Positions 922 to 39,550 of a DNA stretch of 64,000 nt are shown in pieces. The first letter of the stretch is position 1, and each line of letters opens with the position of its first letter. Under the pieces are notes generated by a model, which made no database searches, was not told where the DNA came from, and was given only the letters and a program-made list of their open reading frames with translations. This DNA is from Acidicapsa acidisoli (GTDB taxonomy: Bacteria > Acidobacteriota > Terriglobia > Terriglobales > Acidobacteriaceae): assembly GCF_025685625.1 (NCBI RefSeq), contig NZ_JAGSYI010000008.1, forward strand, positions 1 through 64,000, written 5' to 3'. The position numbers and the translations under genes are program-made.

Positions 922-2202
922 CTAACCGGCTTTGGTGACTAGCTGCGGTCCTGGCTTATTGCCAAAGCCGAACGAGGGTGCATTGGCTCGAATCATCTGC
1001 TTTTTGAAATCGTTGCTCAAGTGGGCATAATGGCGCATCGTGATTCGCGTATCCTTGTGTCCAAGTTGAGCGGCCAATACTTCAATGGGCATTCCGTTCA
1101 TTACCGAATGACTGGCGTATGTGTGACGCAGTATATGGAAGGTTACGCCTGCGATCTTTGCTGCTTCACACGCTGCGTCCATCGGCCTCTTTTGTTCGCT
1201 TTTCTTCCAAGTCGTATCATTCGCCTTCACGAAGATGCGATCCTTGCCGCTGCGTCCATGCGTCAACTCTGCGAACAGTGCGATACCCTCATCGTTCAAT
1301 TGAACATACCTTGATTCACCATTCTTGCTATCGGCGATGTAAACGGTTCCCTCTTTCGCTGCGAAATCCTTTACGGTCATTGCTGTTAGTTCTCCATAGC
1401 GGCAACCCGTGACCAATGCGCCTTTGACTAGATGGCCGAAGTCTGGTTCGCACGCTCGCATGAGTGCAGTCACTTCATCAGCAGTAAGAAATCGAACCTT
1501 GGGCACGTCTACTTTGCTGAAGGGCTTCACGTCCACCCAAGCGGCATCTGAGGCTATGCGCCTGGATTCCGATTTCGCATAGTTCAACGCAGCCTTGAGA
1601 ACCGTTAGAATCCGGTTCGCTGTGGCCTGCCTAGCGCGTTGCTGGCTTTCGTCCATCGTCCGATAGGCTTGGGGCTTCCCTGCCTTCGTGCGAACCCGTG
1701 GCGCGGCCTCTGCTAGCGAATCTCGCCACGCTTTGATCTTGCCGTGCCGGAGCTTGCCGAGTTCAACATCCCCCAACGTGGGCAGGATATGAGCCTTGGC
1801 GATTGCCCTTGTGCGATCTTGGGGCTTGCGCTTCACTTTCGTCAGATGGGCAAGGTATTCATCCACGGCTTGAGCAACAGTGAATCCGCCAGACTGTACC
1901 TCGCCGGTATCCTCTTGAGCTTTGAGCGATGCCCAATCCCGCGCTTTTGCTTGAGCCTGATCGAATGAAAGAACACGGATACCGTCAGCATCTTCAAAAT
2001 CATCAGCAACGCCTAGAGACGCTTTGCGCCTGCCTGTTGCCACAGTGAAGTGTTTGGCGATCCATGCTCCGCTGGTCGCTCCCTTGTAGTAGCCGACTGC
2101 AAGCCCTTTGGAGATGCTTCGCCAGTAGGGTTCTTTGCGTTGCTGTAAGGACGTACGGGCAGAGCGTGTATTGATTCGAGCGTCTTTTCGTGTGCGTGCC
2201 AT
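922..2202 (-). CDS. Tyrosine-type site-specific integrase (element A)
   Basis: About 426 residues, the usual size for phage/ICE tyrosine recombinases. In the numbering that begins three codons upstream (a TTG at 2211), the catalytic set is complete: Arg271 in 'TGCRYGEL', a Lys near 296, 'HILRH' giving His359 and Arg362, His385 in 'LGHKD' and Tyr395 in 'MRHYAHL'. A SAM-like core-binding domain (about residues 108-215) precedes the catalytic domain, and the N-terminus is basic. The ATG at 2202 is preferred over that TTG; neither has a clear ribosome site. It lies 150 bp from the tRNA-Glu att fragment, as expected for the integrase at the end of an integrated element. It should catalyse integration and excision at that site or a related one. 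Confidence 0.9.
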   Translation of the reverse strand: MARTRKDARINTRSARTSLQQRKEPYWRSISKGLAVGYYKGATSGAWIAKHFTVATGRRKASLGVADDFEDADGIRVLSFDQAQAKARDWASLKAQEDTGEVQSGGFTVAQAVDEYLAHLTKVKRKPQDRTRAIAKAHILPTLGDVELGKLRHGKIKAWRDSLAEAAPRVRTKAGKPQAYRTMDESQQRARQATANRILTVLKAALNYAKSESRRIASDAAWVDVKPFSKVDVPKVRFLTADEVTALMRACEPDFGHLVKGALVTGCRYGELTAMTVKDFAAKEGTVYIADSKNGESRYVQLNDEGIALFAELTHGRSGKDRIFVKANDTTWKKSEQKRPMDAACEAAKIAGVTFHILRHTYASHSVMNGMPIEVLAAQLGHKDTRITMRHYAHLSNDFKKQMIRANAPSFGFGNKPGPQLVTKAG

Positions 2203-2350
2203 GTCGGGCAATTATCGGGCAATTATGAGCCTGAATGCAAGAGAATTCCGGTGGACACTCGTGGACGATAAATCACGAATCGTCAATAACAATAGGGTTT
2301 TTGTAACATTTTCAGAATTCTATGAACGCTTCAGAATCGCGCATTTTCTC

Positions 2351-2396
2351 CCCTTTCACGGCGATAACACGGGTTCAAATCCCGTCGGGGACGCCA
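2351..2396 (+). other. Attachment site: 3' half of tRNA-Glu(TTC)
   Basis: The sequence runs from the anticodon loop (CTTTCAC) through GGCGATAACACGGG, TTCAAAT, CCCGT and the 3' acceptor strand to the encoded CCA, matching the 3' half of a bacterial tRNA-Glu. Upstream of the loop, pairing is lost: the 5' anticodon strand does not match and no D arm exists. It is therefore a duplicated tRNA 3' end, the usual core left by tyrosine integrases. The intact tRNA-Glu gene must lie outside the window. Two integrase genes flank this core, one on each side, suggesting tandem insertions. Confidence 0.75.
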
Positions 2397-3618
2397 AATC
2401 ATTCAACAACTTACGCTGTTGAATGATTTTCTCGTACGTCCGTTTTGTTCCAATAAGCCTGGGGCTCTGCTGATCTGCGTTTTCATCGAACAACATGTCG
2501 ACCAGGCGGCTCTGAGCCGTACGCTTGGCTTGTGTGACAGCTTGCGCGTACAAATTCATAGTTACCAGGCTATTGGCATGTCGCAATAGCTCCTGAACGG
2601 TCTTCACATCTTCCCCATTTGCTTTGAGAAGAGTTGCGTAGGTACGCCGGAAGGTGTGCCAACCGATCCGGCCCTGAATTCCGGCCGCCTGCACAGCCGG
2701 TTGCAAATGCCAGCGGTTCAACGTTCCGGGCCAGTATGGTTGTTTCCCCTCGGCATGTGGACTGGCGAAGACCCAGTCTTCGAGTCGCGGGTAGGCGCAG
2801 ATCGTCCGCCAATGCCATAGTGCTCCCGCGAGGCGAGCGTCTAGTGGCACCGGCTTTTGACTGGCTTCAGTCTTGCACTCGCCGACGTGCTGGAGTGAGA
2901 TCGAGCGAGTGACATGGATTTGGAATTTCTCGAAATCGATGTCTTCCCACTTGAGTGCGAGTAATTCTCCGACACGCAACCCTGTCATCACGTCGACCAA
3001 CACTGCGGTGCGCGCTGGCTCTTCCAGATGGAGGAGCAGCCTTTCCACTTCTTCCATGGTTAGCACGGTCGGGATGCTCATCCGCTTCGAGCTTTGGCGC
3101 ACTTGCGTGATGGGATTCCTGTCGTGCCACTCCCAGCGGACTGCGTGATTGAAGACGGCGTGCATGATGTTCCGGATCTTTGCTTTGCTGCCGTTAGAAA
3201 GAGCGAGGGATCGGAGCCATTCCTCGACGGCAACAGATTTCACATCCTTCAGGCGGTAGTTGCCCCATCGGGGTAGTATCCAACGCCTGAAGTAGCCTTT
3301 GTAGGTTTCGCAGGTTGCAAAAGTTTTGTTTGAATCCTCGCTCAGTTCCTTCTCTCGGTAGTGTTCGATCAATGTCTGAACGATAACTGCTTCGAGATGG
3401 AAACGTGGACTCTCCGAGTTGATGTTGACCAAGAGCGAAGCAACAGCGCGTTTCGCTGCTGTCTCGTTTGGATATTGATCGAGGCTTCCAACCACCAGGC
3501 TGCGGCGTTTGCGTTTTCCATCGGCCTTCGTTTCGTACCATCGGTACTCCCAGGCACGAGGACCGCGCTTGCGTTCCACAAGCTGAAGGTTCCCTTGTTG
3601 ATAGCGTGTCCGTCTCAT
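2356..3618 (-). CDS. Tyrosine-type site-specific integrase (element B)
   Basis: A 420-residue tyrosine recombinase. Recognisable parts are an N-terminal DNA-binding region with 'WEYRWYE', a SAM-like core (around residues 80-165), and the catalytic domain with Arg in 'TGLRVGEL', 'HTFRRTYA' (His-x-x-Arg), 'LLRHANS' in the second-His position and the Tyr in 'MNLYAQ'. Its last residues, 'ASPTGFEPVLSP', are the antisense reading of the tRNA-Glu T-loop, so the stop codon lies inside the att core. This is common for integrases sitting directly on attL. An excisionase-like gene ends 12 bp upstream on the same strand, forming an xis-int pair. The right end of this element is not identified. Confidence 0.9.
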   Translation of the reverse strand: MRRTRYQQGNLQLVERKRGPRAWEYRWYETKADGKRKRRSLVVGSLDQYPNETAAKRAVASLLVNINSESPRFHLEAVIVQTLIEHYREKELSEDSNKTFATCETYKGYFRRWILPRWGNYRLKDVKSVAVEEWLRSLALSNGSKAKIRNIMHAVFNHAVRWEWHDRNPITQVRQSSKRMSIPTVLTMEEVERLLLHLEEPARTAVLVDVMTGLRVGELLALKWEDIDFEKFQIHVTRSISLQHVGECKTEASQKPVPLDARLAGALWHWRTICAYPRLEDWVFASPHAEGKQPYWPGTLNRWHLQPAVQAAGIQGRIGWHTFRRTYATLLKANGEDVKTVQELLRHANSLVTMNLYAQAVTQAKRTAQSRLVDMLFDENADQQSPRLIGTKRTYEKIIQQRKLLNDLASPTGFEPVLSP

Positions 3619-20477: not shown

Positions 20478-20572
20478 GGGCTATTAGCTCAGTGGTAGAG
20501 CGGCGGTCTGCATCAAGACCGTAGGCCAAAGAAAACCGCGCGTCGTGGGTTCGATCCCCACAGAGTCCACCA
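20478..20572 (+). tRNA. tRNA-like gene with a 20-nt insertion in the anticodon loop
   Basis: If 20513-20532 are removed, a canonical 75-nt cloverleaf remains: acceptor GGGCTAT/AGAGTCC (one A-G mismatch, one G-T pair), D arm GCTC/GAGC, anticodon stem GCGGT/ACCGC with loop CTGCAAA (anticodon GCA), variable loop GCGTC, T arm GTGGG/CCCAC with TTCGATC, A73 and encoded CCA. With the insertion, the anticodon arm can instead fold as CGGTCT/AGACCG with a 6-nt GCATCA loop. The acceptor has G3-T70 and A73, which are alanine identity elements, while the GCA anticodon is that of cysteine. Isotype and function are therefore unclear; it may be a pseudo-tRNA or a specialised tRNA. It lies in mobile sequence. 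Confidence 0.7.
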
Positions 20573-20660
20573 ATACCTTTAACGCCTACGGCACGAAAGC
20601 TCTCCCTAGTGGAGGGCTTTCGTCGTATTTGGGGCAAGGCGCAGAGTTTCAGGAGGCCAG

Positions 20661-21014
20661 ATGGTCACGAAGGTCAAATGTGTCACAAAAGGTTGTGAGT
20701 GGGAAAATCAGGTGTTCCCGGTATCAGTTCTCTTCATCAACAGAATCGCTCCGCTTGACGGTCCATACCCGTGTCCAAAATGCGATCAGGAAATGAAGGT
20801 CGTTGCCCGTGTCCTGGCCAGCTATAAGCCAGGTTCCGGCGCGAAGGCTGCACCGCGCAGAGCCGCATCAAAGCCTACGAAGAAAGCGGTCGGCAAGAAA
20901 AAGTTCAAAGGCATAAAGGTCAAAATGTCGAACCCTGTTTTGGGCGGTAGGAAATCATCCAAGAAACCATCTCCCAAGAAGCCAGGGCCGAGGAAGCGCG
21001 GACCCGGCAAGTAG
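20661..21014 (+). CDS. Small zinc-ribbon protein with a Lys/Pro-rich basic tail
   Basis: A 117-residue protein with ATG after CAGGAGGCCAG. The N-terminal half has two cysteine pairs ('VKCVTKGCEW' and 'YPCPKCDQEM'), a likely zinc ribbon of about 45 residues. From residue 60 it becomes an extreme Lys/Pro/Arg/Gly-rich tail ('KPTKKAVGKKKFKGIKVKM', 'KKPSPKKPGPRKRGPGK'), resembling histone H1-like bacterial proteins. This suggests nucleic-acid binding. It starts 89 bp after the tRNA-like gene and may share its transcription. No named family is recognised. Confidence 0.6.
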   Translation: MVTKVKCVTKGCEWENQVFPVSVLFINRIAPLDGPYPCPKCDQEMKVVARVLASYKPGSGAKAAPRRAASKPTKKAVGKKKFKGIKVKMSNPVLGGRKSSKKPSPKKPGPRKRGPGK

Positions 21015-22319: not shown

Positions 22320-22562
22320 CTACTCCTTCGCCTTCAGCTTGGAGTCGTTTTCGCGGATGAACGCCTCGATCTCCGGTGCACTCGCCAGTATGCGGAGCCA
22401 TTGTTCCTTGTAGAGCGTGACCGGAAAGCGGCCCATGCCGTACAGGGAGAGCCCGCCTTTCTCGCTCACCTTCAACGTGAGGCCGCCCTTGTCTTTGCTC
22501 TTGAGCTGGGCATTCTCAGCCCGCAGGCGCTCCAGCTCCGCTTGCATATCCACTTCACTCAT
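22320..22562 (-). CDS. Small coiled-coil conserved hypothetical protein
   Basis: An 80-residue protein starting at an ATG whose bases overlap the stop of the upstream chimeric helicase gene (ATGA). The first 22 residues form a heptad-like helix ('[19 protein letters not shown]'); the rest, '[24 protein letters not shown]', is a short motif found in small phage and plasmid proteins of unknown role. Tight overlap means translational coupling to the helicase-like protein. Function unknown. Confidence 0.65.
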
Positions 22563-24697
22563 CGTTTCCTTCCTCCGATCGTTCCCAGCTTGATGTCTAC
22601 GTCGATCCAGCCCAGTTTCCACGGTTCCGTCCTGTGCTCATCGAATCTGATTCCATTCACACGGGCGTCCCCGCCAATGTCGTAGAGGGTGATCCTGTAA
22701 GCATCGTCCACGTAATCATTGCCAAGGAGGTAGGCCGTGACCATTGTTGCGATTTGCGGCGTGACTGGAACGTCTCCCGTCGCCGTCTTGAGCACCTTCC
22801 CGGTGAAGAATGCTTCGTCGGCCTTCTGCGGGCGGGCTGAGAGCACGGCGGCGATGTCCTTCTGGAGACCGGCGACGAATTCCTTGTAGCCTTCACTTGC
22901 GACAACGGTGAGGACATTCAACTCGTGAACGGTAGCTGGATCGTCCATTCGATCGCCGTTCTGGTTGACTGAGAGCCGCAAACCGCGTCCGACTTCCTGC
23001 CTGCGGGTCGTCGTGTTATCACTTTTCTTCAGCATCCCTATGACGAACACATTGGGGTTATCCCAACCCTCGCGCAGTGCCGAGTGGGAAAACAAGAACC
23101 GCACAGGCTCATCAAGTGAAAGCAGCCGTGCTTTGTTCTTGAGGATGAGATCGTAGGCGTCTACGTCATCGGACTCGGTTGAGCGAGCCGCGGTTTCAGG
23201 GTCAACCAAGCGCTTGCTCCGCTTGTCCACGGAGAAGTAGCCCTCGTGTGTTCGGTCTGTCGGGATGCCGCGGAGATATTGGTTGTACTTGCTATCTTCT
23301 AGGCTGAGAATCTCGTTCAGGCGGGCGTTGTACTCCTCCTCGAAGAGCTGGGCGTACTCACCCTGCTTCGCTTCATCTCCCTGATAGACGCGATACTTCG
23401 CAACTTCGTCGATGAAGAAGAGCGAAAGGACCTTGATACCCTTCGCAAAGAGTTGCTGTTCTTTCTCGAAGTGGGCGGCAACTGCTTCACGAATTTGAAG
23501 TCGGCGAAGCACGGTTTCGTTCACGTCGCCCACAGCATCGCCAGCGGACAGCACCACTCCATTCGTAAAGCTGAGAGTGTTGTCGAGTGCGTTGATGTCT
23601 GAGACCACGAAGCCTTTGTACTGGTCCAGTTCGCCAGACTTCGCGTGGAGATTATCGCCTTTGGCCAGGTTGCGTGTATCGGCTTTGATGCCGCTGGCGC
23701 GACGCATTTCCAGCTCGACTCGGGCCACTGGTGGCTTGTCTCTGAAAACGTCGATCCCTTGCAGATACAGGTAGGCGCTCGTTCCGGCTTGCCCCTTGAG
23801 CGAGATGCCGCGTACTGCAATCTTCTTGACCAGTTTCCGGTTGTAGGCATCGAGAGCATCGAGCCGGTAGACCCTATTGTGTTCCTGTTTGTGCGTGGCG
23901 GAGTAGCGAAGGATGAAGAGAGGCTTGAACTCCTTCAGCGATTCAACCGTCTTCGCTCCCTCCATCTTCTGGGGCTCGTCCAAAATCAAGATTGGACGAT
24001 TCCGAGCGATCACGTCGATTGGTCTGCGTGTTTGGAAGTCGTCCAGCTCCTCATAGATTCGCCGTGCATCTTTGCCGCGAGCATTGAATGCCTGGGCGTT
24101 GATGACCATCACGTTGATGCCGGCGTCGGCGCTGAAGCTCTCAAGCTCGTGCAGTTCCTTGGAGTTGTAGATGAAGAAGCGAACTCGCTTCCCGTACCGT
24201 TCTCGAAGCAGCGGCGAAAGATGTTCGTACAGGTAATCGGCGGTGTCCGCGAAAGCTGTGAAGACGAGCACCTTGCGATTACCCGGATTGATCGGAGCTT
24301 CGATCTTGGCCTGAATGTGCTCTTTCAAGTGTTGCAACTTGGCGTCGTCGGCTGGGGAGACCTTTTCCATCTCACTGAGGAGCGTCTCGATCAAACCGAG
24401 ATCGGCCTTCAAGTCGTGCTCCCAAGAGGCGAGGTCCATGTCTCCGAGCTGGATATTCACCTTACCTCCGGTCTGCTGATCGGGCGGCACCTCTTCGGGA
24501 TCGAAAAATTCGAGATCCTCGTCGGGACTGGCGTCCTCGAATGTTGCGGAAATGTCCGCGAAGGTGCCGTCCTGTCCCGTCTTGCGGAAGTTTTCGATGC
24601 GGCCTAGTGTCGAAAGGTGAATCTGCTGGAGCTTCTTAAGCGTGATGCGGAACGACGCAACCGAACTTTCCAAGCGCTTGAGGAGATTCACGGTCAT
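22559..24697 (-). CDS. Chimeric ORF: SNF2-PLD helicase C-part fused to type III restriction Res subunit
   Basis: A 712-residue frame with two origins. Residues 1 to about 168 ('[16 protein letters not shown]', '[17 protein letters not shown]') are the middle part of the SNF2-type helicases with PLD-like N-terminus. From about 170 it switches to a type III restriction Res protein: '[18 protein letters not shown]', Walker-B-like '[13 protein letters not shown]', '[21 protein letters not shown]', and the motif V/VI region '[10 protein letters not shown]' and '[10 protein letters not shown]'. The Res Walker A half and SNF2 motifs V-VI are lost, and the C-terminus lacks a visible nuclease. The junction lies near 24180-24200. 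The frame is continuous with the upstream helicase except for one TGA. It is probably non-functional or a new hybrid. Confidence 0.75.
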
Positions 24698-24703
24698 CAG
24701 GGA

Positions 24704-26434
24704 TCACAAGCTCTTCTCACGGTCGATCTGTTTCAGCTTTCCACCGCCACTGCTCACCTCGGTATCGTATAGGTCTTCGTAAAGAGACAGACGACTCGGC
24801 AGGATGTAGCTCACAGGCGTGTAGACGCCCAGCTTCAAGGTCGTCAGATTTAGGAAAATCTCGTTGAAGCCGATCACATCCTGCCGATGAGTGAGTGGCG
24901 AGTGGAAGGATAACGGCTTGCGGCGGGTTGGGAACTCTCCAATTTCAGTCGTGTCATAGAACGTCGTGATATGGCGACGAGAACGAGCGATTGTCACCGA
25001 GTCCAAGAGCTCGAAGAAATCGAAGTCTAAAGTGGCGAGAATCGCCTGTGGCGTGCGCTCGTCCGCTGGCAATTTCGACCAGGCATTGAACGCAGCTTGT
25101 GCACGACGGAAGATCTGGTCAACGTTTCTGGTCGCCTTCAGCTTTGAGCTGAGGGTTTCTGGCTCACCCTCATAGGCGAGAGCAAGCTGGTTCTTCAGAT
25201 CATTAAATCGGTTGTTGACCGGCGTGGCCGACAGCATGAGCACCTTCGTGCGAACGCCCTGCTTGATGACCTTATTCATCAGGTACTGGTAGCGGGTTTC
25301 ACGATCTTTGAATGCGTCGTCGTTGCGGAAGTTGTGCGACTCGTCGATGACGACCAGATCGTAGTTGCTCCAGTTCACGCGATTCAATTTGAGCCCTAGC
25401 GACTCTCCGCGATCCCGGAGGAGATCGGTATGGCACAGAACGTCAAAGCAAAGACGATCCTTCAGTAGCGGGTTGTTCTTCAGATTGCCCTTGTACGTTA
25501 GCCAGTTGTCGGCAAGCTTCTTAGGACACAGGACCAGCACCGATTTGTTGCGAAGCTCGTAGTATTTAATGACGGCCAAGGCCGTAAACGTCTTGCCTAG
25601 ACCCACGCTGTCAGCTAGGATGCAACCGTTGAAGGTTTCCAGTTTATTAATGATTCCGGTCGCGGCGTCCTTCTGGAAGTGATAGAGCTTTTGCCAGATG
25701 ACGCTGTTCTGGTAGCCGGTACGCTCGTTTGGCAGGACGTCTGCGCTGATGTCCTCCAGAAATTCACTAAAGATGCTATAAAGCATCAAGAAGTAAATAC
25801 GCTGTGGCGAGTTCTCCTGGTAGACCGAGGCGATGTGGTCACAGATTAGGTCGGTGACATCAGCCACCTTGTCTACGTCCTTCCAAATCTGATCGAAGAG
25901 TTCAATGAAGCTCCGGGTTGCCGTGGGCTCATCGATGCGGCTGATGAAGTTGGAGACCGCATTCCCTTGTTGATACCCGAGATCAACGGCGGTGAATCCG
26001 TGCAAGGGCATATACACAGCTTCTTCCGTAGACTTCACACACACGAATTGCTGCATGGGGGCGCCGCTCCGATTGGAACGGAATTGAGCCCTCCGTCGAA
26101 TCCAGTCCGCACACTCTTTAGCGATTGCACGCTGGGTGAGCTTGTTCTTTAGGCGAAGCTCGAAGTCGGTTCCGAAGAATCCCTTTTCTCTTGAAGGCAG
26201 AGGAATATGAAACTCTCGCACTTCTCGGCGTGCCTTGTCCGTGACTTCACTCGGAACGAAGGTGGGGGTCGTGAAGATGAACTGTAGAGACTCTATGGAT
26301 TCAAGTTCTCGCTTGAGTGCCTCAAAGGCATAGATCGAGAAGCTCGATGCAGCAATGGCGACTCTGGCGTTTGGAGTAATCGACCGCTTTAGGTCGTCCC
26401 CGAGGAAGCGATTTACATTATCGATGACTTCCAT
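24704..26434 (-). CDS. SNF2-family helicase with PLD-like N-terminal domain (N-terminal part)
   Basis: 576 residues: a PLD-like region (about 1-160, 'ARVAIAASSFSIYAFEALKREL'), then the SNF2 RecA-1 domain with Walker A Lys281 in 'LADSVGLGKTFTAL', DESH at 363-366 ('VVIDESHNF') and motif III 'LMLSATPVNNRFNDL'. Family members run on for several hundred residues, but here a TGA at 24704-24706 stops the frame after 'REKSL'; the next codons (TCC CTG ATG ACC) continue the family sequence in the same frame. A CGA-to-TGA change would explain it. Relatives are found in defence islands, often with nuclease or methylase partners; here none is evident. DNA translocation needs the missing RecA-2 half. Confidence 0.8.
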   Translation of the reverse strand: MEVIDNVNRFLGDDLKRSITPNARVAIAASSFSIYAFEALKRELESIESLQFIFTTPTFVPSEVTDKARREVREFHIPLPSREKGFFGTDFELRLKNKLTQRAIAKECADWIRRRAQFRSNRSGAPMQQFVCVKSTEEAVYMPLHGFTAVDLGYQQGNAVSNFISRIDEPTATRSFIELFDQIWKDVDKVADVTDLICDHIASVYQENSPQRIYFLMLYSIFSEFLEDISADVLPNERTGYQNSVIWQKLYHFQKDAATGIINKLETFNGCILADSVGLGKTFTALAVIKYYELRNKSVLVLCPKKLADNWLTYKGNLKNNPLLKDRLCFDVLCHTDLLRDRGESLGLKLNRVNWSNYDLVVIDESHNFRNDDAFKDRETRYQYLMNKVIKQGVRTKVLMLSATPVNNRFNDLKNQLALAYEGEPETLSSKLKATRNVDQIFRRAQAAFNAWSKLPADERTPQAILATLDFDFFELLDSVTIARSRRHITTFYDTTEIGEFPTRRKPLSFHSPLTHRQDVIGFNEIFLNLTTLKLGVYTPVSYILPSRLSLYEDLYDTEVSSGGGKLKQIDREKSL

Positions 26435-26497: not shown

Positions 26498-26794
26498 TCA
26501 GCGGCGCTTAGCCCGGTAGCCCTTAGGCAATTCGTCTCCCGATTCCACGGGATTGCTGCCAGCTTTATCGAGCAGGATCAATGCTCTAGCAGCAAGTTCC
26601 TTCGTCGGCTTTTTGCGGTTTCGCATCCATTCCTCGTGTTCCAGGTGCGCCAGCTTCTCAGCGACCGCGACATTGATGAACTGGTTCAACGAGACGCCCT
26701 CTTTTTCTGAAAACACCTCTGCGGTTCGCCGCACCGACGGCATCAGCCGCAGCGGAAACTTCGGAATTGCGGTCTTACGCGCTTCAGTCGCCAT
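26498..26794 (-). CDS. RHH/HicB-like antitoxin
   Basis: A 98-residue protein. The N-terminal half 'PKFPLRLMPSVRRTAEVFSEKEGVSLNQFINVAVAEKLAHLE' is a ribbon-helix-helix fold in the HicB/CopG antitoxin style, with a short basic tail ('DELPKGYRAKRR'). Its ATG lies one base after the TGA of the PIN toxin gene, so the two are co-translated with the toxin first. It should bind the promoter upstream of the toxin gene and neutralise the toxin. Confident as an RHH protein, with the pair assignment based on adjacency. Confidence 0.85.
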   Translation of the reverse strand: MATEARKTAIPKFPLRLMPSVRRTAEVFSEKEGVSLNQFINVAVAEKLAHLEHEEWMRNRKKPTKELAARALILLDKAGSNPVESGDELPKGYRAKRR

Positions 26795-26795
26795 C

Positions 26796-27224
26796 TCAGT
26801 TCCCCTCCCTCATCTTCTCTAACAATTCTGCCGGGGAAAGCACCGGAATTCCAAACCTCTTCCCTGCCCCTGCAAAATGCTTCGTGTTGTTCGTAACCAG
26901 CGCCTCTGCCCGTCCGTTGATCGCAACATCCAAAACCATGTCGTCGCTCGGATCGGGGGACAAGGGCCGGGGCTTCATCACGACTTTTACCGGCTCCGCG
27001 AAGGCTTCCATTGCTTCGATCAACTCCAAAATCTCTCGCTTGCTCAACGCCGACGCTCTAACGTGTTCCGAACGAAGTGCGACATCCCGATATTCCAAGC
27101 CCAGCTTGAGGTCCATCAGAGGCACGAGCTCTTCACGAAATATCATCCGCAACACTTCTCCCGCAGCCCCATCGCTCGACCGAACAGCCGTCACGAACGA
27201 TGCCGTATCGAGCACAATTCTCAC
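26796..27224 (-). CDS. PIN-domain toxin
   Basis: A 142-residue PIN protein starting at GTG 27224 ('VRIVLDTASFVTAVRSSDGA'), chosen because PIN domains begin with such a strand; the frame is open upstream without a fitting start. Acidic residues of the PIN site are visible: Asp in 'VLDTASF', Glu in 'DLKLGLEYRDV', Asp in 'DPSDDMVLDVAI' and 'LVTNNTKHF' in the C-terminal part. The family cleaves RNA. The toxin gene precedes the antitoxin, unlike most VapBC operons but like many COG1569-type pairs. Confidence 0.85.
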   Translation of the reverse strand: MRIVLDTASFVTAVRSSDGAAGEVLRMIFREELVPLMDLKLGLEYRDVALRSEHVRASALSKREILELIEAMEAFAEPVKVVMKPRPLSPDPSDDMVLDVAINGRAEALVTNNTKHFAGAGKRFGIPVLSPAELLEKMREGN

Positions 27225-27689
27225 AAAGGCATGATACCACCCATGATGCCACACAAAGCGCAGATTTAAGAGAGGACGTTTCCTCCCTGCTCCAGCCGGC
27301 GATCGGGCTGCCGTCTTCCGACACCCTCCTCTGCGGGCCGTTCCTTCCCGCAACGCCCTCCCAAAAGCATTCATGCGCTGCGCGCAAAGCCAAGGAAACC
27401 AAGCCTGCTAAGGAGTGAGTGTACCGGGACATGCATTACGTTGTGGACCTGAGACATTCTTTACAAGCCCCTTGCGGTAGCGACGGTTCGAGTTGAGGGG
27501 ACACGAGAAAACATATATCCAGTCGTCGAGGCCGCGGGAATGTGGGAATCCCGAAGGGATTTCCAAAGAGTGTGGGAAGAGTGGGAAGCCGGTTTCATGG
27601 CTTTCCATGCTTTCCACACTCTGTCATTTCCATGGCCTACTTTTCGCGCGGCCAATGCTGGATAAACCGAAGCGCAAGTTTGAGAGGCC
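27225..27689. other. Intergenic region with a hairpin-forming repeat
   Basis: No gene is supported. The stretch holds a near-perfect inverted repeat GGGAATCCC-GAA-GGGATTTCC (27544-27564) followed by a second partly complementary run around 27597-27622 (two GGCTTTCCATG-type segments). The sequence style resembles dispersed intergenic palindromes seen in other soil bacteria. The upstream part (27225-27420) is the toxin promoter region. Confidence 0.35.
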
Positions 27690-36784: not shown

Positions 36785-37495
36785 TCAGACCACTCTTCGC
36801 GCAGCTCTAAAACGAAGCTCTTCCACATTGAGCTCTCCAATCTCCATGTCTCGAAAGAAGACTCTGTAAAGCCCTGGTGTGATTAACTCAAATCCTAACT
36901 CTTCGAAGCGGAATACTTCGCTGATGAAAACTCTGTTCTTGTGCCAGCTGATGTCGCCGCTATTGTTCACCCGTCGCAGCAGGAGAGCCTTCGGGTACGT
37001 AAACTCTGGAAACTTGCGCGGCAGTCGGATCGAGCTAGGGATGTAGAGACTTGCGGGAACTTGGTTGTGCAGGCCCTCATGCGGGCGCTCGTTATTGAAC
37101 ACGTAGCGAAAGTTATCGAAGCGGCTCTGCTGTGCGCGAAGGGATGCCGCAGGCGGTTTCGTCGTGTCCTCCTTCAGCGTGCGATGCATCCGCTCATGGC
37201 GGCCGTTTTGTTGCGGTCGGCCTGCTTGAATGCGTTCATGCACGATCCCGAGCTTCATCCAGCCGAGCGAGAGCTTCGACAGCCCCAGAAGCCCCGTGCC
37301 CGCAAACGGTGCGCCGTTGTCGGTCCTGATCCGTGCTGGGACCCCGTACTCTCGCATGGCTGCTTCGCAGATCGCTCGAACCTGGCTGAGGTCCATACGC
37401 GAGACGATCTGGCAACGAATCAAAAAGCGACTATGCGCGTCAGTGATCGTGAACGGATCACAGCGCTTGCCGTCGCCGGTGGTGAAGTAGCCTTG
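36785..37495 (-). pseudogene. IS481-type transposase, 5'-truncated by a group II intron
   Basis: The frame reads from about 37492 to 36785: 'GYFTTGDGKRCDPFTITDAHSRFL', 'RTDNGAPFAGTG' (DDE Asp), 'GIVHERIQAGRPQQNGRHERMHRTLK' with the catalytic Glu, and a C-terminal tail. This is the rve-type integrase core of IS481-family elements; the N-terminal HTH half is not found. The upstream edge coincides with the 3' end of a group II intron at 37495, so the intron inserted into the transposase gene and the other half was later lost. The outer IS end may lie near 36745. Confidence 0.8.
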
Positions 37496-39550
37496 TAGGG
37501 TCGAGCATCAGCGCCGTGCGGCATTGCTGCCGCCGGGTTCTGATGCCCGCCCTCCGAACCGGACGTGCACCTTTCGTTATGCATCCGGCTCTCCGGGAAC
37601 ACTGATGTATGCAGGAGTGCGCATCCAGCCTCTGCGGAAGCGTTCCACGCGCAGCATGGAGAGAAGGAACTGCTCGACATTGCCTTCACGCCATAGCTTG
37701 CGAGTAGGACGAAGTAGACTCGGCAGTCGCACTAGCCGTGTCCTCTTGTGATGGAGCTTCTTATGCTTCTTCATCAGCCAACGCCAGATGCAGTCCCCGA
37801 CATAGAAGTCGAGTGCGGCGAACTGACGGCTTGCGCCGGTGCAGAAGCGATAGTAGTTTCCCCATCCCCGCAGAACAGGATTAAGTTTCTGGAGAAGCTC
37901 AGACAGCGACCAGAGCGTATTAGCGCCCTTGGTCATCTGCTTCACCATGTACCGAAGGTCCGCTCGTTTGCTGGTCGGTATCTCGATCCTCGGCATATAA
38001 CCGAATCGCGGATGCCATTTATAGCGCACCCGTTGACTGAGGAACTGGAAGCCCTCGGTCAGATCAGAGACCCGCGTCTTATCGATGGATAGCTCCAACT
38101 TCATCGACTCCCGCAGGTAATTCGCAAGGTCTGCCTTTTCCTGCTCAGCTTGCTCGCGAGTACCAGATACAAGAACCACGAAGTCATCTGCATATCGAAT
38201 CGGGAAGAACACTGCCCGTCCAGCTTTACGGTCCGTCATGCGTGCCCACAACGCCGCTGTCGTAGAATCACTCTTGCGGCGGGCCTGGAGTTTTCGACGA
38301 TGGTGCGTCCACCGCTCGTATCGTTCCTCGATGATGCCGAGGGCGATGTTCGCAAGCAGCGGTGAGATCACACCACCTTGCGGAGTGCCTTTGTCTGTCG
38401 GAAGCAGGAAGCCGTCCGCTAGAACTCCAGCCTTCAGGAACTTTGCGATCAACCTCGTGACCTTGCCATCGATGACGCGAGCGCGAACCCGCTTCATCAA
38501 CTGATGGTGATCGATGTTGTCGAAGCAGCCCTTGATATCTCCTTCGATGACCCACTGGTAGGGCGTCCTCTGACGCCGGCCATCCTCTGCCGTCGCTCGC
38601 GGTCGCATGCACATCCGGATATGCTCCAAGGCGCCGTGGCAGCCTCGGCCGGGCCTGAACCCGTACGACACATGCCAGAAGCCAGCCTCGAAGATCGGCT
38701 CCAGGATATTCTTGACCGCGCATTGAACTACGCGATCACGCACGGTCGGGATCCCGAGGGGTCGGAACTTCCCCGGTTGACGTGGCTTGGGGATCAGCTT
38801 CCGCCGTGAGGGGCTCGGCTTGTACCGGCCACTCTTCAGGTCGCCATGGAGTTGTTCGAGGAACAACTCCATACCCATCGCCACTTTGATTCCCGCTATT
38901 GTCATCCCGTCGACCCCGGCAGTACGACGCCCTTTGTTTAGAGCGATTTTCCGCCAGGCGCACCGCAGATTGCGGAGGTCTGTAATCCAGTTCCACAAGT
39001 CGCGGTAGCTGTCTTCAGGATGTGTCCTGCTCCATTGATAGAGCTTGCATTGCACGCTGAGGAGCCAAGCCTCATCAGCCTGATCACCCAAGTCCATGGA
39101 TGGTTCCTCCGTCTTCGCAACTCTGTCAGTTCCTTGCCTGCCTTCGCCATGCACACGGCTTTCCCGTGTTCGGACTACTACGCAGGCTCCGCCCCGTCGA
39201 TTCACCATCTCCAGTCTCCGTGGCTAGCCCGGCTCCGTTGCCGGGCGGTCAATCGGGGTTCCCATGTTCCAGTTCTCGACCTTCATCTCGTAGGTGGCAT
39301 ACTTTACCCCTGGCGATTCAGAGCGACGATCCATGAGGAGATCACCGTCGCTGAGTCCGATTTCCGGACCCGCCAGTGGAGAACTTCAAGCCCCACCAAC
39401 TCAGATCGCATAAACTCCCGGTCCCATCTGACCTACTTCGGGAGCATTGAGCTATTCAAGACAGAGGCGTCCATAAGAACAAATCAACGCCGCGAATCGC
39501 GCCACGGGCGTCCTACGTTGCGTGAGGACAAACGCATCCGCTGGATGACA
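37495..39550 (-). mobile_element. Group II intron with maturase ORF
   Basis: The 3' end is well supported: domain V (37556-37591; helix GAGCCGGATGC / GCACGTCCGGTTC on the minus strand) followed by domain VI, whose arms GGGCATCAG and CTGATGCTC (37540-37548 and 37503-37511) enclose a GC-rich loop, then the terminal ACCCTAC at the junction with the transposase. Domains II/III are suggested upstream of the ORF by the 'GCGTAGTAGTCCGA..ACGGGAAAGCCGT' block near 39160-39190. The 5' end is set only by loss of homology with hydrolase upstream DNA near 39550 and is approximate. EBS/IBS pairing was not determined. Confidence 0.75.
37577..39097 (-). CDS. ltrA: Group II intron reverse transcriptase/maturase (LtrA-like)
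   Basis: 506 residues from ATG 39097 (GGAGGAACCATCC upstream); an upstream open part to 39208 lies in intron RNA. RT motifs: 'KFRPLGIPTVRDRVVQCAVK', 'SYGFRPGRGCHGALEHIR', 'VIEGDIKGCFDNIDHHQL', 'GTPQGGVISPLLANIAL' and the polymerase site 'IRYADDFVVLV'. A maturase X domain follows ('LNPVLRGWGNYYRF'). No C-terminal HNH endonuclease with paired CxxC is seen, so it likely uses endonuclease-independent retrohoming. The stop codon lies within intron domain V, as is usual. It looks intact. Confidence 0.95.
   Translation of the reverse strand: MDLGDQADEAWLLSVQCKLYQWSRTHPEDSYRDLWNWITDLRNLRCAWRKIALNKGRRTAGVDGMTIAGIKVAMGMELFLEQLHGDLKSGRYKPSPSRRKLIPKPRQPGKFRPLGIPTVRDRVVQCAVKNILEPIFEAGFWHVSYGFRPGRGCHGALEHIRMCMRPRATAEDGRRQRTPYQWVIEGDIKGCFDNIDHHQLMKRVRARVIDGKVTRLIAKFLKAGVLADGFLLPTDKGTPQGGVISPLLANIALGIIEERYERWTHHRRKLQARRKSDSTTAALWARMTDRKAGRAVFFPIRYADDFVVLVSGTREQAEQEKADLANYLRESMKLELSIDKTRVSDLTEGFQFLSQRVRYKWHPRFGYMPRIEIPTSKRADLRYMVKQMTKGANTLWSLSELLQKLNPVLRGWGNYYRFCTGASRQFAALDFYVGDCIWRWLMKKHKKLHHKRTRLVRLPSLLRPTRKLWREGNVEQFLLSMLRVERFRRGWMRTPAYISVPGEPDA

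What the first reader, a model, noticed from the sequence alone, without database searches (positions are those of the whole stretch)
20478..20572. tRNA gene with a 20-nt anticodon-loop insertion and alanine-type acceptor but GCA anticodon
The cloverleaf becomes canonical (75 nt) only when 20513-20532 are removed, leaving a GCGGT/ACCGC stem and CTGCAAA loop. Small non-group-I introns are not expected in bacterial tRNAs. The acceptor carries G3-T70 and A73, known alanine identity elements, while the loop reads cysteine GCA. If charged with alanine it would misread Cys codons; if unprocessed it would be a decoy. Other readings are a duplication-derived pseudo-tRNA or an element-borne specialised tRNA. 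It lies amid mobile-type genes, with a basic zinc-ribbon gene directly downstream.
Basis: partly seen in the sequence, partly recalled or inferred. Interest (0 to 1): 0.75.

Follow-up and report, generated by a model that had tools for sequence, protein, structure and literature searches.

The report
tRNA-like gene with enlarged anticodon loop
A mobile region of a bacterial genome carries a transfer-RNA-like gene whose amino-acid end looks made for alanine but whose codon-reading arm is spoiled by a 20-base insert; genes of similar build turn up in viral sequences, so it may be a tRNA that does something other than read codons, or simply a dying gene.

Summary
Window 20478-20572 is a tRNA-like gene (Rfam tRNA, 50 bits). 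Acceptor, D and T modules and CCA are intact except for one A6.G67 mismatch. A 20-nt insert sits in the anticodon loop. G3.T70 occurs in 3 of the 49 other ARAGORN tRNAs of the genome, all three tRNA-Ala. RtcB and EndA were not found in the genome, so protein splicing of known kind is unlikely. The build is not unique. Of 102 viral tRNA-like genes with an overlong core, 28 share it (1.3 expected by permutation). One viral tRNA-Gly family has a covarying 24-nt hairpin at the same loop site and an insert-free phage homologue. No sequence homologue of this insert was found. Best reading: an accessory, non-decoding, possibly alanine-charged tRNA-like RNA. A decaying tRNA gene is a close rival.

The parts
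20478..20572 (+). tRNA-like gene, 95 nt with encoded CCA
   Evidence: ARAGORN, Rfam RF00005 50 bits
20478..20484 (+). acceptor 5' strand GGGCTAT; G3 pairs with T70 (20566)
   Evidence: sequence; G3.T70 in 3 of 49 other genome tRNAs, all Ala
20487..20501 (+). D-arm GCTC-AGTGGTA-GAGC
   Evidence: sequence, Rfam alignment
20503..20507 (+). anticodon stem 5' strand (27-31) GCGGT, shared by both alternative stems
   Evidence: sequence; folds
20508..20512 (+). loop positions 32-36 CTGCA with the GCA triplet
   Evidence: sequence
20513..20532 (+). 20-nt insert TCAAGACCGTAGGCCAAAGA; holds AGACCGT (20516-20522), which pairs with 20503-20509
   Evidence: sequence; pair probability 0.89-0.98; shuffle control
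20533..20544 (+). 37-38 AA, stem 3' strand 39-43 ACCGC, variable loop 44-48 GCGTC
   Evidence: sequence; statistics on viral sequences of the same build
20545..20572 (+). T-arm GTGGG-TTCGATC-CCCAC, acceptor 3' strand AGAGTCC, A73, CCA
   Evidence: sequence
20588..20626 (+). strong hairpin downstream, possible terminator or processing signal, without a long T run
   Evidence: -22.3 kcal/mol, z -5.4; the consensus scan found no terminator and no promoter
20661..21014 (+). 117-aa lysine-rich protein with CxxC pairs, no known family
   Evidence: no Pfam, PHROGs, NCBIfam or PADLOC match; 1 weak partial match, with stops, in 199 other genomes of the family

Best explanation
An accessory tRNA-like RNA gene in a mobile/defence region. 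The parts used by RNase P, the CCA end, AlaRS (G3.U70, A73) and the elbow (D/T loops) are kept, while the decoding arm has been remodelled by a 20-nt insert at 36/37. Shown here: the anatomy, the alanine signature, the competing hairpin (by prediction only), no EndA or RtcB match, and recurrence of the build in viral sequences. Inferred: that it is transcribed, processed and alanylated, that it does not decode, and that it is kept because a tRNA body without a working anticodon is useful to the element, for example as a decoy for tRNA-binding or tRNA-cutting proteins or as a sink or donor of alanine.
For: Intact modules and Rfam score. G3.T70 only in tRNA-Ala among the 49 other tRNAs; the bacterial Ala determinants listed in PMC9976931 lie in the acceptor plus G20, none in the anticodon (passages). 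No EndA, no RtcB match. 28 of 102 viral tRNA-like genes share the loop-insert build, 1.3 expected. Acceptors of 116 unique unfiltered viral hits pair 7 of 7 in 79 and 6 of 7 in 24, though the pattern did not ask for it. A viral tRNA-Gly family has an insert at the same site with 3 pairs of its hairpin changed on both sides and an insert-free homologue in phage RcXuper. The only other case left after artefacts in two samples of relatives, L287, also has G3.T70, A73 and CCA.
Against: No homologue of this insert found by blastn in 100 relatives, phages or plasmids, or by patterns in 399 genomes of the class and in viral contigs, so no conservation can be shown for this gene. A6.G67 mismatch; 47 of 49 other genome tRNAs pair 7 of 7. 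G20, a further bacterial Ala determinant, is absent here (T20) and in L287 (C20). No consensus promoter. Neighbouring helicase/restriction genes match models only in pieces, so the region may be decaying. The insert does not form a hairpin of its own as in the tRNA-Gly family. L287's predicted fold is not a cloverleaf. G3.T70 with A73 is in only 3 of 102 viral cases, so alanine is not a mark of the wider set.
Confidence: 0.45

Rival explanations
1. A decaying tRNA pseudogene: a captured tRNA gene suffered a 20-nt insertion or partial duplication of its 3' anticodon strand and now drifts with the rest of a broken island.
For: A6.G67 mismatch; no relatives of the insert found; AAGACCG and AAAACCG near-repeat in the sequence; adjacent Snf2/restriction genes match models only in pieces; no consensus promoter.
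Against: Every other arm, the tertiary-contact bases of D and T loops and the encoded CCA are intact; the build recurs far above the permutation control in viral tRNA-like genes, with paired changes in one family.
Confidence: 0.35
2. A tRNA with a true small intron, removed to give a 75-nt tRNA with GCA anticodon.
For: Removal gives a canonical loop CTGCAAA; the insert site 36/37 matches the viral tRNA-Gly insert, whose phage homologue lacks it cleanly.
Against: No EndA or RtcB match in the genome (other ligases were not searched); the precursor is predicted to fold another way; 20 nt is far too short for a group I intron and Rfam reports none there.
Confidence: 0.07
3. A long-variable-region tRNA like the phage tRNA-Ile(TAT) type: stem GCGGT/ACCGT with G27.T43, then a 22-nt variable region.
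For: Same 22-nt length, same G27.T43 and C28-G42 and similar ends as L264; the fold prefers this stem.
Against: The loop would be 10 nt, or 6 nt after two more pairs, not 7; the CAGATAA-like loop of that type's variable region is missing; the acceptor is of Ala type.
Confidence: 0.08
4. An attachment-site remnant or chimera of two host tRNAs left by integration of the element.
For: 18-nt identity to the tRNA-Phe gene in the D-arm and 20-nt identity to a tRNA-His gene in the T-arm; two integrases at 922-3618.
Against: Both identities lie in the most conserved tRNA parts; blastn of the gene against its own genome at E 10 gave no second copy; the two acceptor strands pair with each other.
Confidence: 0.05

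Closest known systems
tRNA-Ala (bacterial)
   Same: G3.U70, A73, G2-C71, C4-G69 as in this genome's tRNA-Ala(GGC), CCA
   Different: No Ala anticodon, no G20, anticodon arm not canonical
Viral tRNA-Gly(GCC) with 24-nt hairpin insert (loci L168, L172, L280; noticed here)
   Same: Insert between loop positions 36 and 37, 5-bp stem and 5-nt variable loop kept
   Different: Its insert is a self-contained covarying hairpin; ours pairs with the anticodon stem strand; no sequence likeness beyond tRNA consensus
Archaeal intron-containing tRNAs
   Same: Same build in sequence (14 of the 17 loop-insert cases of the genome collection are archaeal by title)
   Different: Bacterial genome without EndA or RtcB match
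tmRNA (recalled: alanine-charged by G3.U70, no anticodon)
   Same: Ala acceptor on a body without usable anticodon
   Different: No mRNA-like domain; D-stem present. Not compared here
Bacillus cereus pseudo-tRNA 'tRNA-Other' (recalled)
   Same: A non-decoding tRNA-like RNA
   Different: Different host; sequence not compared here
allo-tRNAs (PMC7609411, passages)
   Same: Non-canonical tRNAs reported from Acidobacteria among others; G3:U70 discussed for them
   Different: Their mark is a 12-bp acceptor domain in 8/4 or 9/3 form; ours is 7+5 with an altered anticodon loop

Membership tests
tRNA (Rfam RF00005) | Score above gathering cut-off | tested here: met
   50 bits against 29
tRNA (Rfam RF00005) | 7-nt anticodon loop on a 5-bp stem | tested here: not met
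   27-nt loop, or 10/6-nt loop in the alternative stem
tRNA-Ala identity (bacterial) | G3.U70, A73, G2-C71 | tested here: met
   sequence; own tRNA-Ala genes; determinants from PMC9976931, passages
tRNA-Ala identity (bacterial) | G4-C69 and G20 | tested here: not met
   C4-G69 (as in own tRNA-Ala(GGC)) and T at position 20
tRNA-Ala identity (bacterial) | Alanylation by AlaRS | not testable with these tools
   needs biochemistry
tRNA-Cys | U73 and GCA in a canonical loop | tested here: not met
   A73; both real tRNA-Cys of the genome have T73
Protein-spliced tRNA intron | EndA-type endonuclease and RtcB-type ligase in the cell | tested here: not met
   no match to PF01974 or PF01139; other ligases not searched
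Group I intron | Catalytic core | tested here: not met
   20 nt; Rfam at gathering cut-off reports none here
Phage tRNA-Ile(TAT) with long variable region | 7-nt TTTATAC loop and CAGATAA-like variable loop | tested here: not met
   sequences side by side
Loop-insert tRNA-like genes of viral contigs | Acceptor at least 6/7, T-stem at least 4/5, 27-31/39-43 5/5 with 5-nt variable loop and overlong loop | tested here: met

The most novel reading that the evidence does not exclude
Phages and mobile elements of bacteria keep a broad, undescribed set of tRNA-shaped RNAs whose anticodon arm is replaced by inserted hairpins or other structure. They are folded, processed and in some cases charged, but do not decode. 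The window gene is an alanine-accepting example in a bacterial defence region, acting on AlaRS, EF-Tu or tRNA-cutting defence enzymes rather than on codons.
Probability: 0.25. Interest if true: 0.8.

Novelty: new variant of a known kind. Interest (0 to 1): 0.5.

Why it matters
Small inserts in the anticodon loop did not come up in term searches of three phage/virus-tRNA papers. If such RNAs are made and used, part of the phage and mobile-element tRNA repertoire is not for translation. That would bear on the open question of why phages carry tRNAs, and on how tRNA-targeting defences are met. If they are spliced, an unknown tRNA splicing route exists in bacteria. Either answer needs only RNA sequencing and an aminoacylation assay.

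Tried and rejected
Closer homologues of the whole gene: blastn in phages and plasmids at E 1e-5 with 211 bases (none) and at E 10 with 95 bases (0 of 450 phage and 0 of 488 plasmid records with a match have one place covering 80%); 100 relatives (besides the gene itself, 2 partial matches to the conserved arms); a 21-mer with up to 3 mismatches in 399 genomes of the class (42 genomes, the gene itself exact, one place at 2 mismatches, the rest at 3; ARAGORN on the 20 places that became loci found a tRNA only at the gene itself; the other places were not run); a 16-mer in viral contigs (32 stretches; ARAGORN's single call there, in L096, spans 1.2 kb and is not over the motif). GCA-specific insert pattern in viral contigs: 4 stretches, ARAGORN found no tRNA in any; L283 shows a T-arm and a tRNA-like 3' end. 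Neighbour gene as a guide to the same element: nothing useful; the next gene gave nothing in plasmids.

Enrichment in viruses over cells: not claimed.

Alanine acceptor as a mark of the whole viral set: rejected (3 of 102). An Ala-acceptor pattern in viral contigs gave 2 stretches.

Rows dropped: 166 pattern rows (165 from 161 loci, and the window); 134 passed the arm filters, 128 unique: window 1, viral 102, genome collection 25. Artefacts seen by eye and left in these counts: tandem tRNAs (L109), assembly gap (L242). In one search, 2 of 4 genomes are artefacts by reading (N run in G813, repeated segment in G943).

Literature: searches; no title or abstract start in those (capped) listings mentions small anticodon-loop inserts in phage tRNAs. 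Only passages found by term were seen of PMC10264068, PMC11555353, PMC10865867, PMC7609411, PMC9897764, PMC6409571 and PMC9976931. bioRxiv and most subscription journals are not held, so absence from print is not shown.

Full report
What is there. The window is the first 64 kb of a 72.8-kb contig in a 7.1-Mb, 18-contig bacterial genome whose organism I did not name. The only tRNA gene ARAGORN finds in it is at 20478-20572, isotype undetermined. Rfam scores it 50 bits as tRNA. The genome gives 51 tRNA-family matches. I fetched 42 stretches holding the other 50; ARAGORN finds 49 tRNAs in them and nothing in one weak locus, C1:2062266. Two ordinary tRNA-Cys(GCA) are present.

Anatomy. Acceptor GGGCTAT/AGAGTCC pairs 6 of 7 (A6.G67 does not). 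The D-arm, the T-arm, the contact bases U8, A14, G15, G18, G19, C48, T54, T55, C56 and A58, and the CCA are present (read). G3.T70 occurs in 3 of the 49 other tRNAs; all three are tRNA-Ala and have A73. Bacterial alanine determinants in the table of PMC9976931 (passages) are A73, G2-C71, G3.U70, G4-C69 and G20, with nothing in the anticodon. Here A73, G2-C71 and G3.U70 are met; 4-69 is C-G, as in this genome's tRNA-Ala(GGC); G20 is not met. Charging with alanine is plausible, not shown.

The anticodon arm. Two stems share the strand 20503-20507. The other (20503-20509 with 20516-20522) gives a 7-bp hairpin with loop GCATCA. The second is predicted at 0.89-0.98 pair probability, the first at about 0.001, and the two whole-molecule structures differ by 6 kcal/mol (MFE). 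A competing helix of that length is reached in 1% of 300 plain shuffles of the loop; among the other 45 loop-insert genes in that test only one (L135, 3.7%) fell below 5%. So this insert is peculiar in holding a second 3' strand.

Is it spliced? No match to the tRNA endonuclease family PF01974 or to RtcB PF01139 in the genome; the same searches rang in 4 and 9 of 14 control genomes. Other ligases were not searched. Splicing of a known protein kind is unlikely.

Does the build occur elsewhere? After arm filters 102 viral and 25 genome sequences remain. A perfect 27-31/39-43 stem with a 5-nt variable loop, that is, an insert in the anticodon loop, is found in 28 of 102 viral (permuted 1.3) and 17 of 25 genome cases (permuted 2.1; 14 of the 17 archaeal, 3 bacterial by title). 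Of the 28, 11 have T33 and 4 have both T33 and A38, so many have no recognisable anticodon. Some viral contigs could belong to archaeal viruses; I did not type them. In 45 of the 102 the fetched stretch holds other tRNAs.

The clearest parallel. Viral loci L168, L172 and L280 carry a tRNA-Gly(GCC) with 24 nt after loop position 36. The Rhodobacter phage RcXuper tRNA-Gly(GCC) aligns to it without the insert. The inserted hairpin keeps all 8 pairs in all 3 sequences, with 3 pairs changed on both sides (only 3 sequences, and 9 of 500 shuffles reach the covariation score of the whole structure). The fetched stretch of L172 holds 15 other tRNAs. Inserts at this loop site are therefore real in viral tRNA genes, and in this family the paired changes point to selection on structure. 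Our insert is at the same site but has no hairpin of its own.

Relatives of the host. The overlong pattern hit 2 of 297 genomes of the phylum and, slightly widened, 4 of 398 of the family (the samples overlap). After two artefacts the same two remain: this gene and L287 in G020. L287 has an unrelated 28-nt loop but also G3.T70, A73 and CCA; its predicted fold is not a cloverleaf. It converges on a gene with a weak PIN match, below Pfam's cut-off. Its region is found in full only in G020 among 45 genomes of the genus; two others match 36-38 nt. With a 3-in-49 background the shared alanine mark is suggestive only.

Setting. The 117-aa gene downstream is an orphan. Further on lie an HNH-like gene, helicase and type III restriction genes that match models only in pieces, and a HicB-like/PIN pair. 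A strong hairpin follows the tRNA-like gene (-22.3 kcal/mol, z -5.4), but the consensus scan found neither promoter nor terminator.

Judgement. I take the gene to be an accessory tRNA-like RNA that does not decode as transcribed and may be charged with alanine; whether it is kept for a function or decaying is nearly even. What lifts it above the ordinary is the recurrence of the build in viral sequences, with paired changes in one family. Term searches of three papers on phage or viral tRNAs found no mention of such inserts (PMC10264068, PMC11555353, PMC6409571; passages only).

Noticed in passing
L168:1120-1218, L172:4450-4548, L280:11540-11638 (viral contigs): tRNA-Gly(GCC) with a covarying 24-nt hairpin inserted after loop position 36; insert-free homologue in Rhodobacter phage RcXuper.
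   Followed up: partly
L151:10265-10361, L152:3847-3945: Pair of viral tRNA-like genes with the same outer parts (GCGGAAAA...TACCTAATCCGC) and inner hairpins that differ in sequence but still pair.
   Followed up: partly
L108, L136, L195, L216, L220, L225: Viral tRNA-like genes that cluster by sequence and share an inner motif (CTCATGGTGAAGGACC-like) in place of an anticodon arm; acceptors differ.
   Followed up: no
L125, L128, L160, L264, L267, L269-L276; phage records HQ316582, PQ768828: tRNA-Ile(TAT) with a 21-25-nt variable region in viral contigs and two alphaproteobacterial-titled genomes; similar genes annotated tRNA-Ile in Vibrio phages.
   Followed up: partly
L206, L215, L221: Viral tRNA-Gly(TCC) with a shared 15-nt variable region AGGCGAATAGTTYAC.
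   Followed up: no
L230 (Cryomorphaceae MAG, two genes): Two tRNA-like genes with loop inserts in one bacterial contig.
   Followed up: no
L287:1494-1590 (G020 contig 14): Second alanine-type tRNA-like gene with an overlong loop, converging on a gene with a weak PIN match; full region in 1 of 45 genomes of its genus.
   Followed up: partly
L046 (own genome C1:2001490-2001563): tRNA with GTG (His) anticodon on a body close to the genome's tRNA-Asp of L031, with G73 instead of the C73 of the other tRNA-His.
   Followed up: no
window 22559-26434 (-): Helicase and restriction genes matching HKD+Snf2 and type III restriction models only in pieces; they look broken or mosaic.
   Followed up: no
window 37495-39208 (-): Group II intron with reverse transcriptase/maturase, beside a piece of an IS481-type transposase at 36785-37423.
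   Followed up: no
window 922-3618 (-): Two tandem tyrosine integrase genes.
   Followed up: no
window 26498-27374 (-): HicB-like gene next to a PIN-family toxin gene.
   Followed up: no
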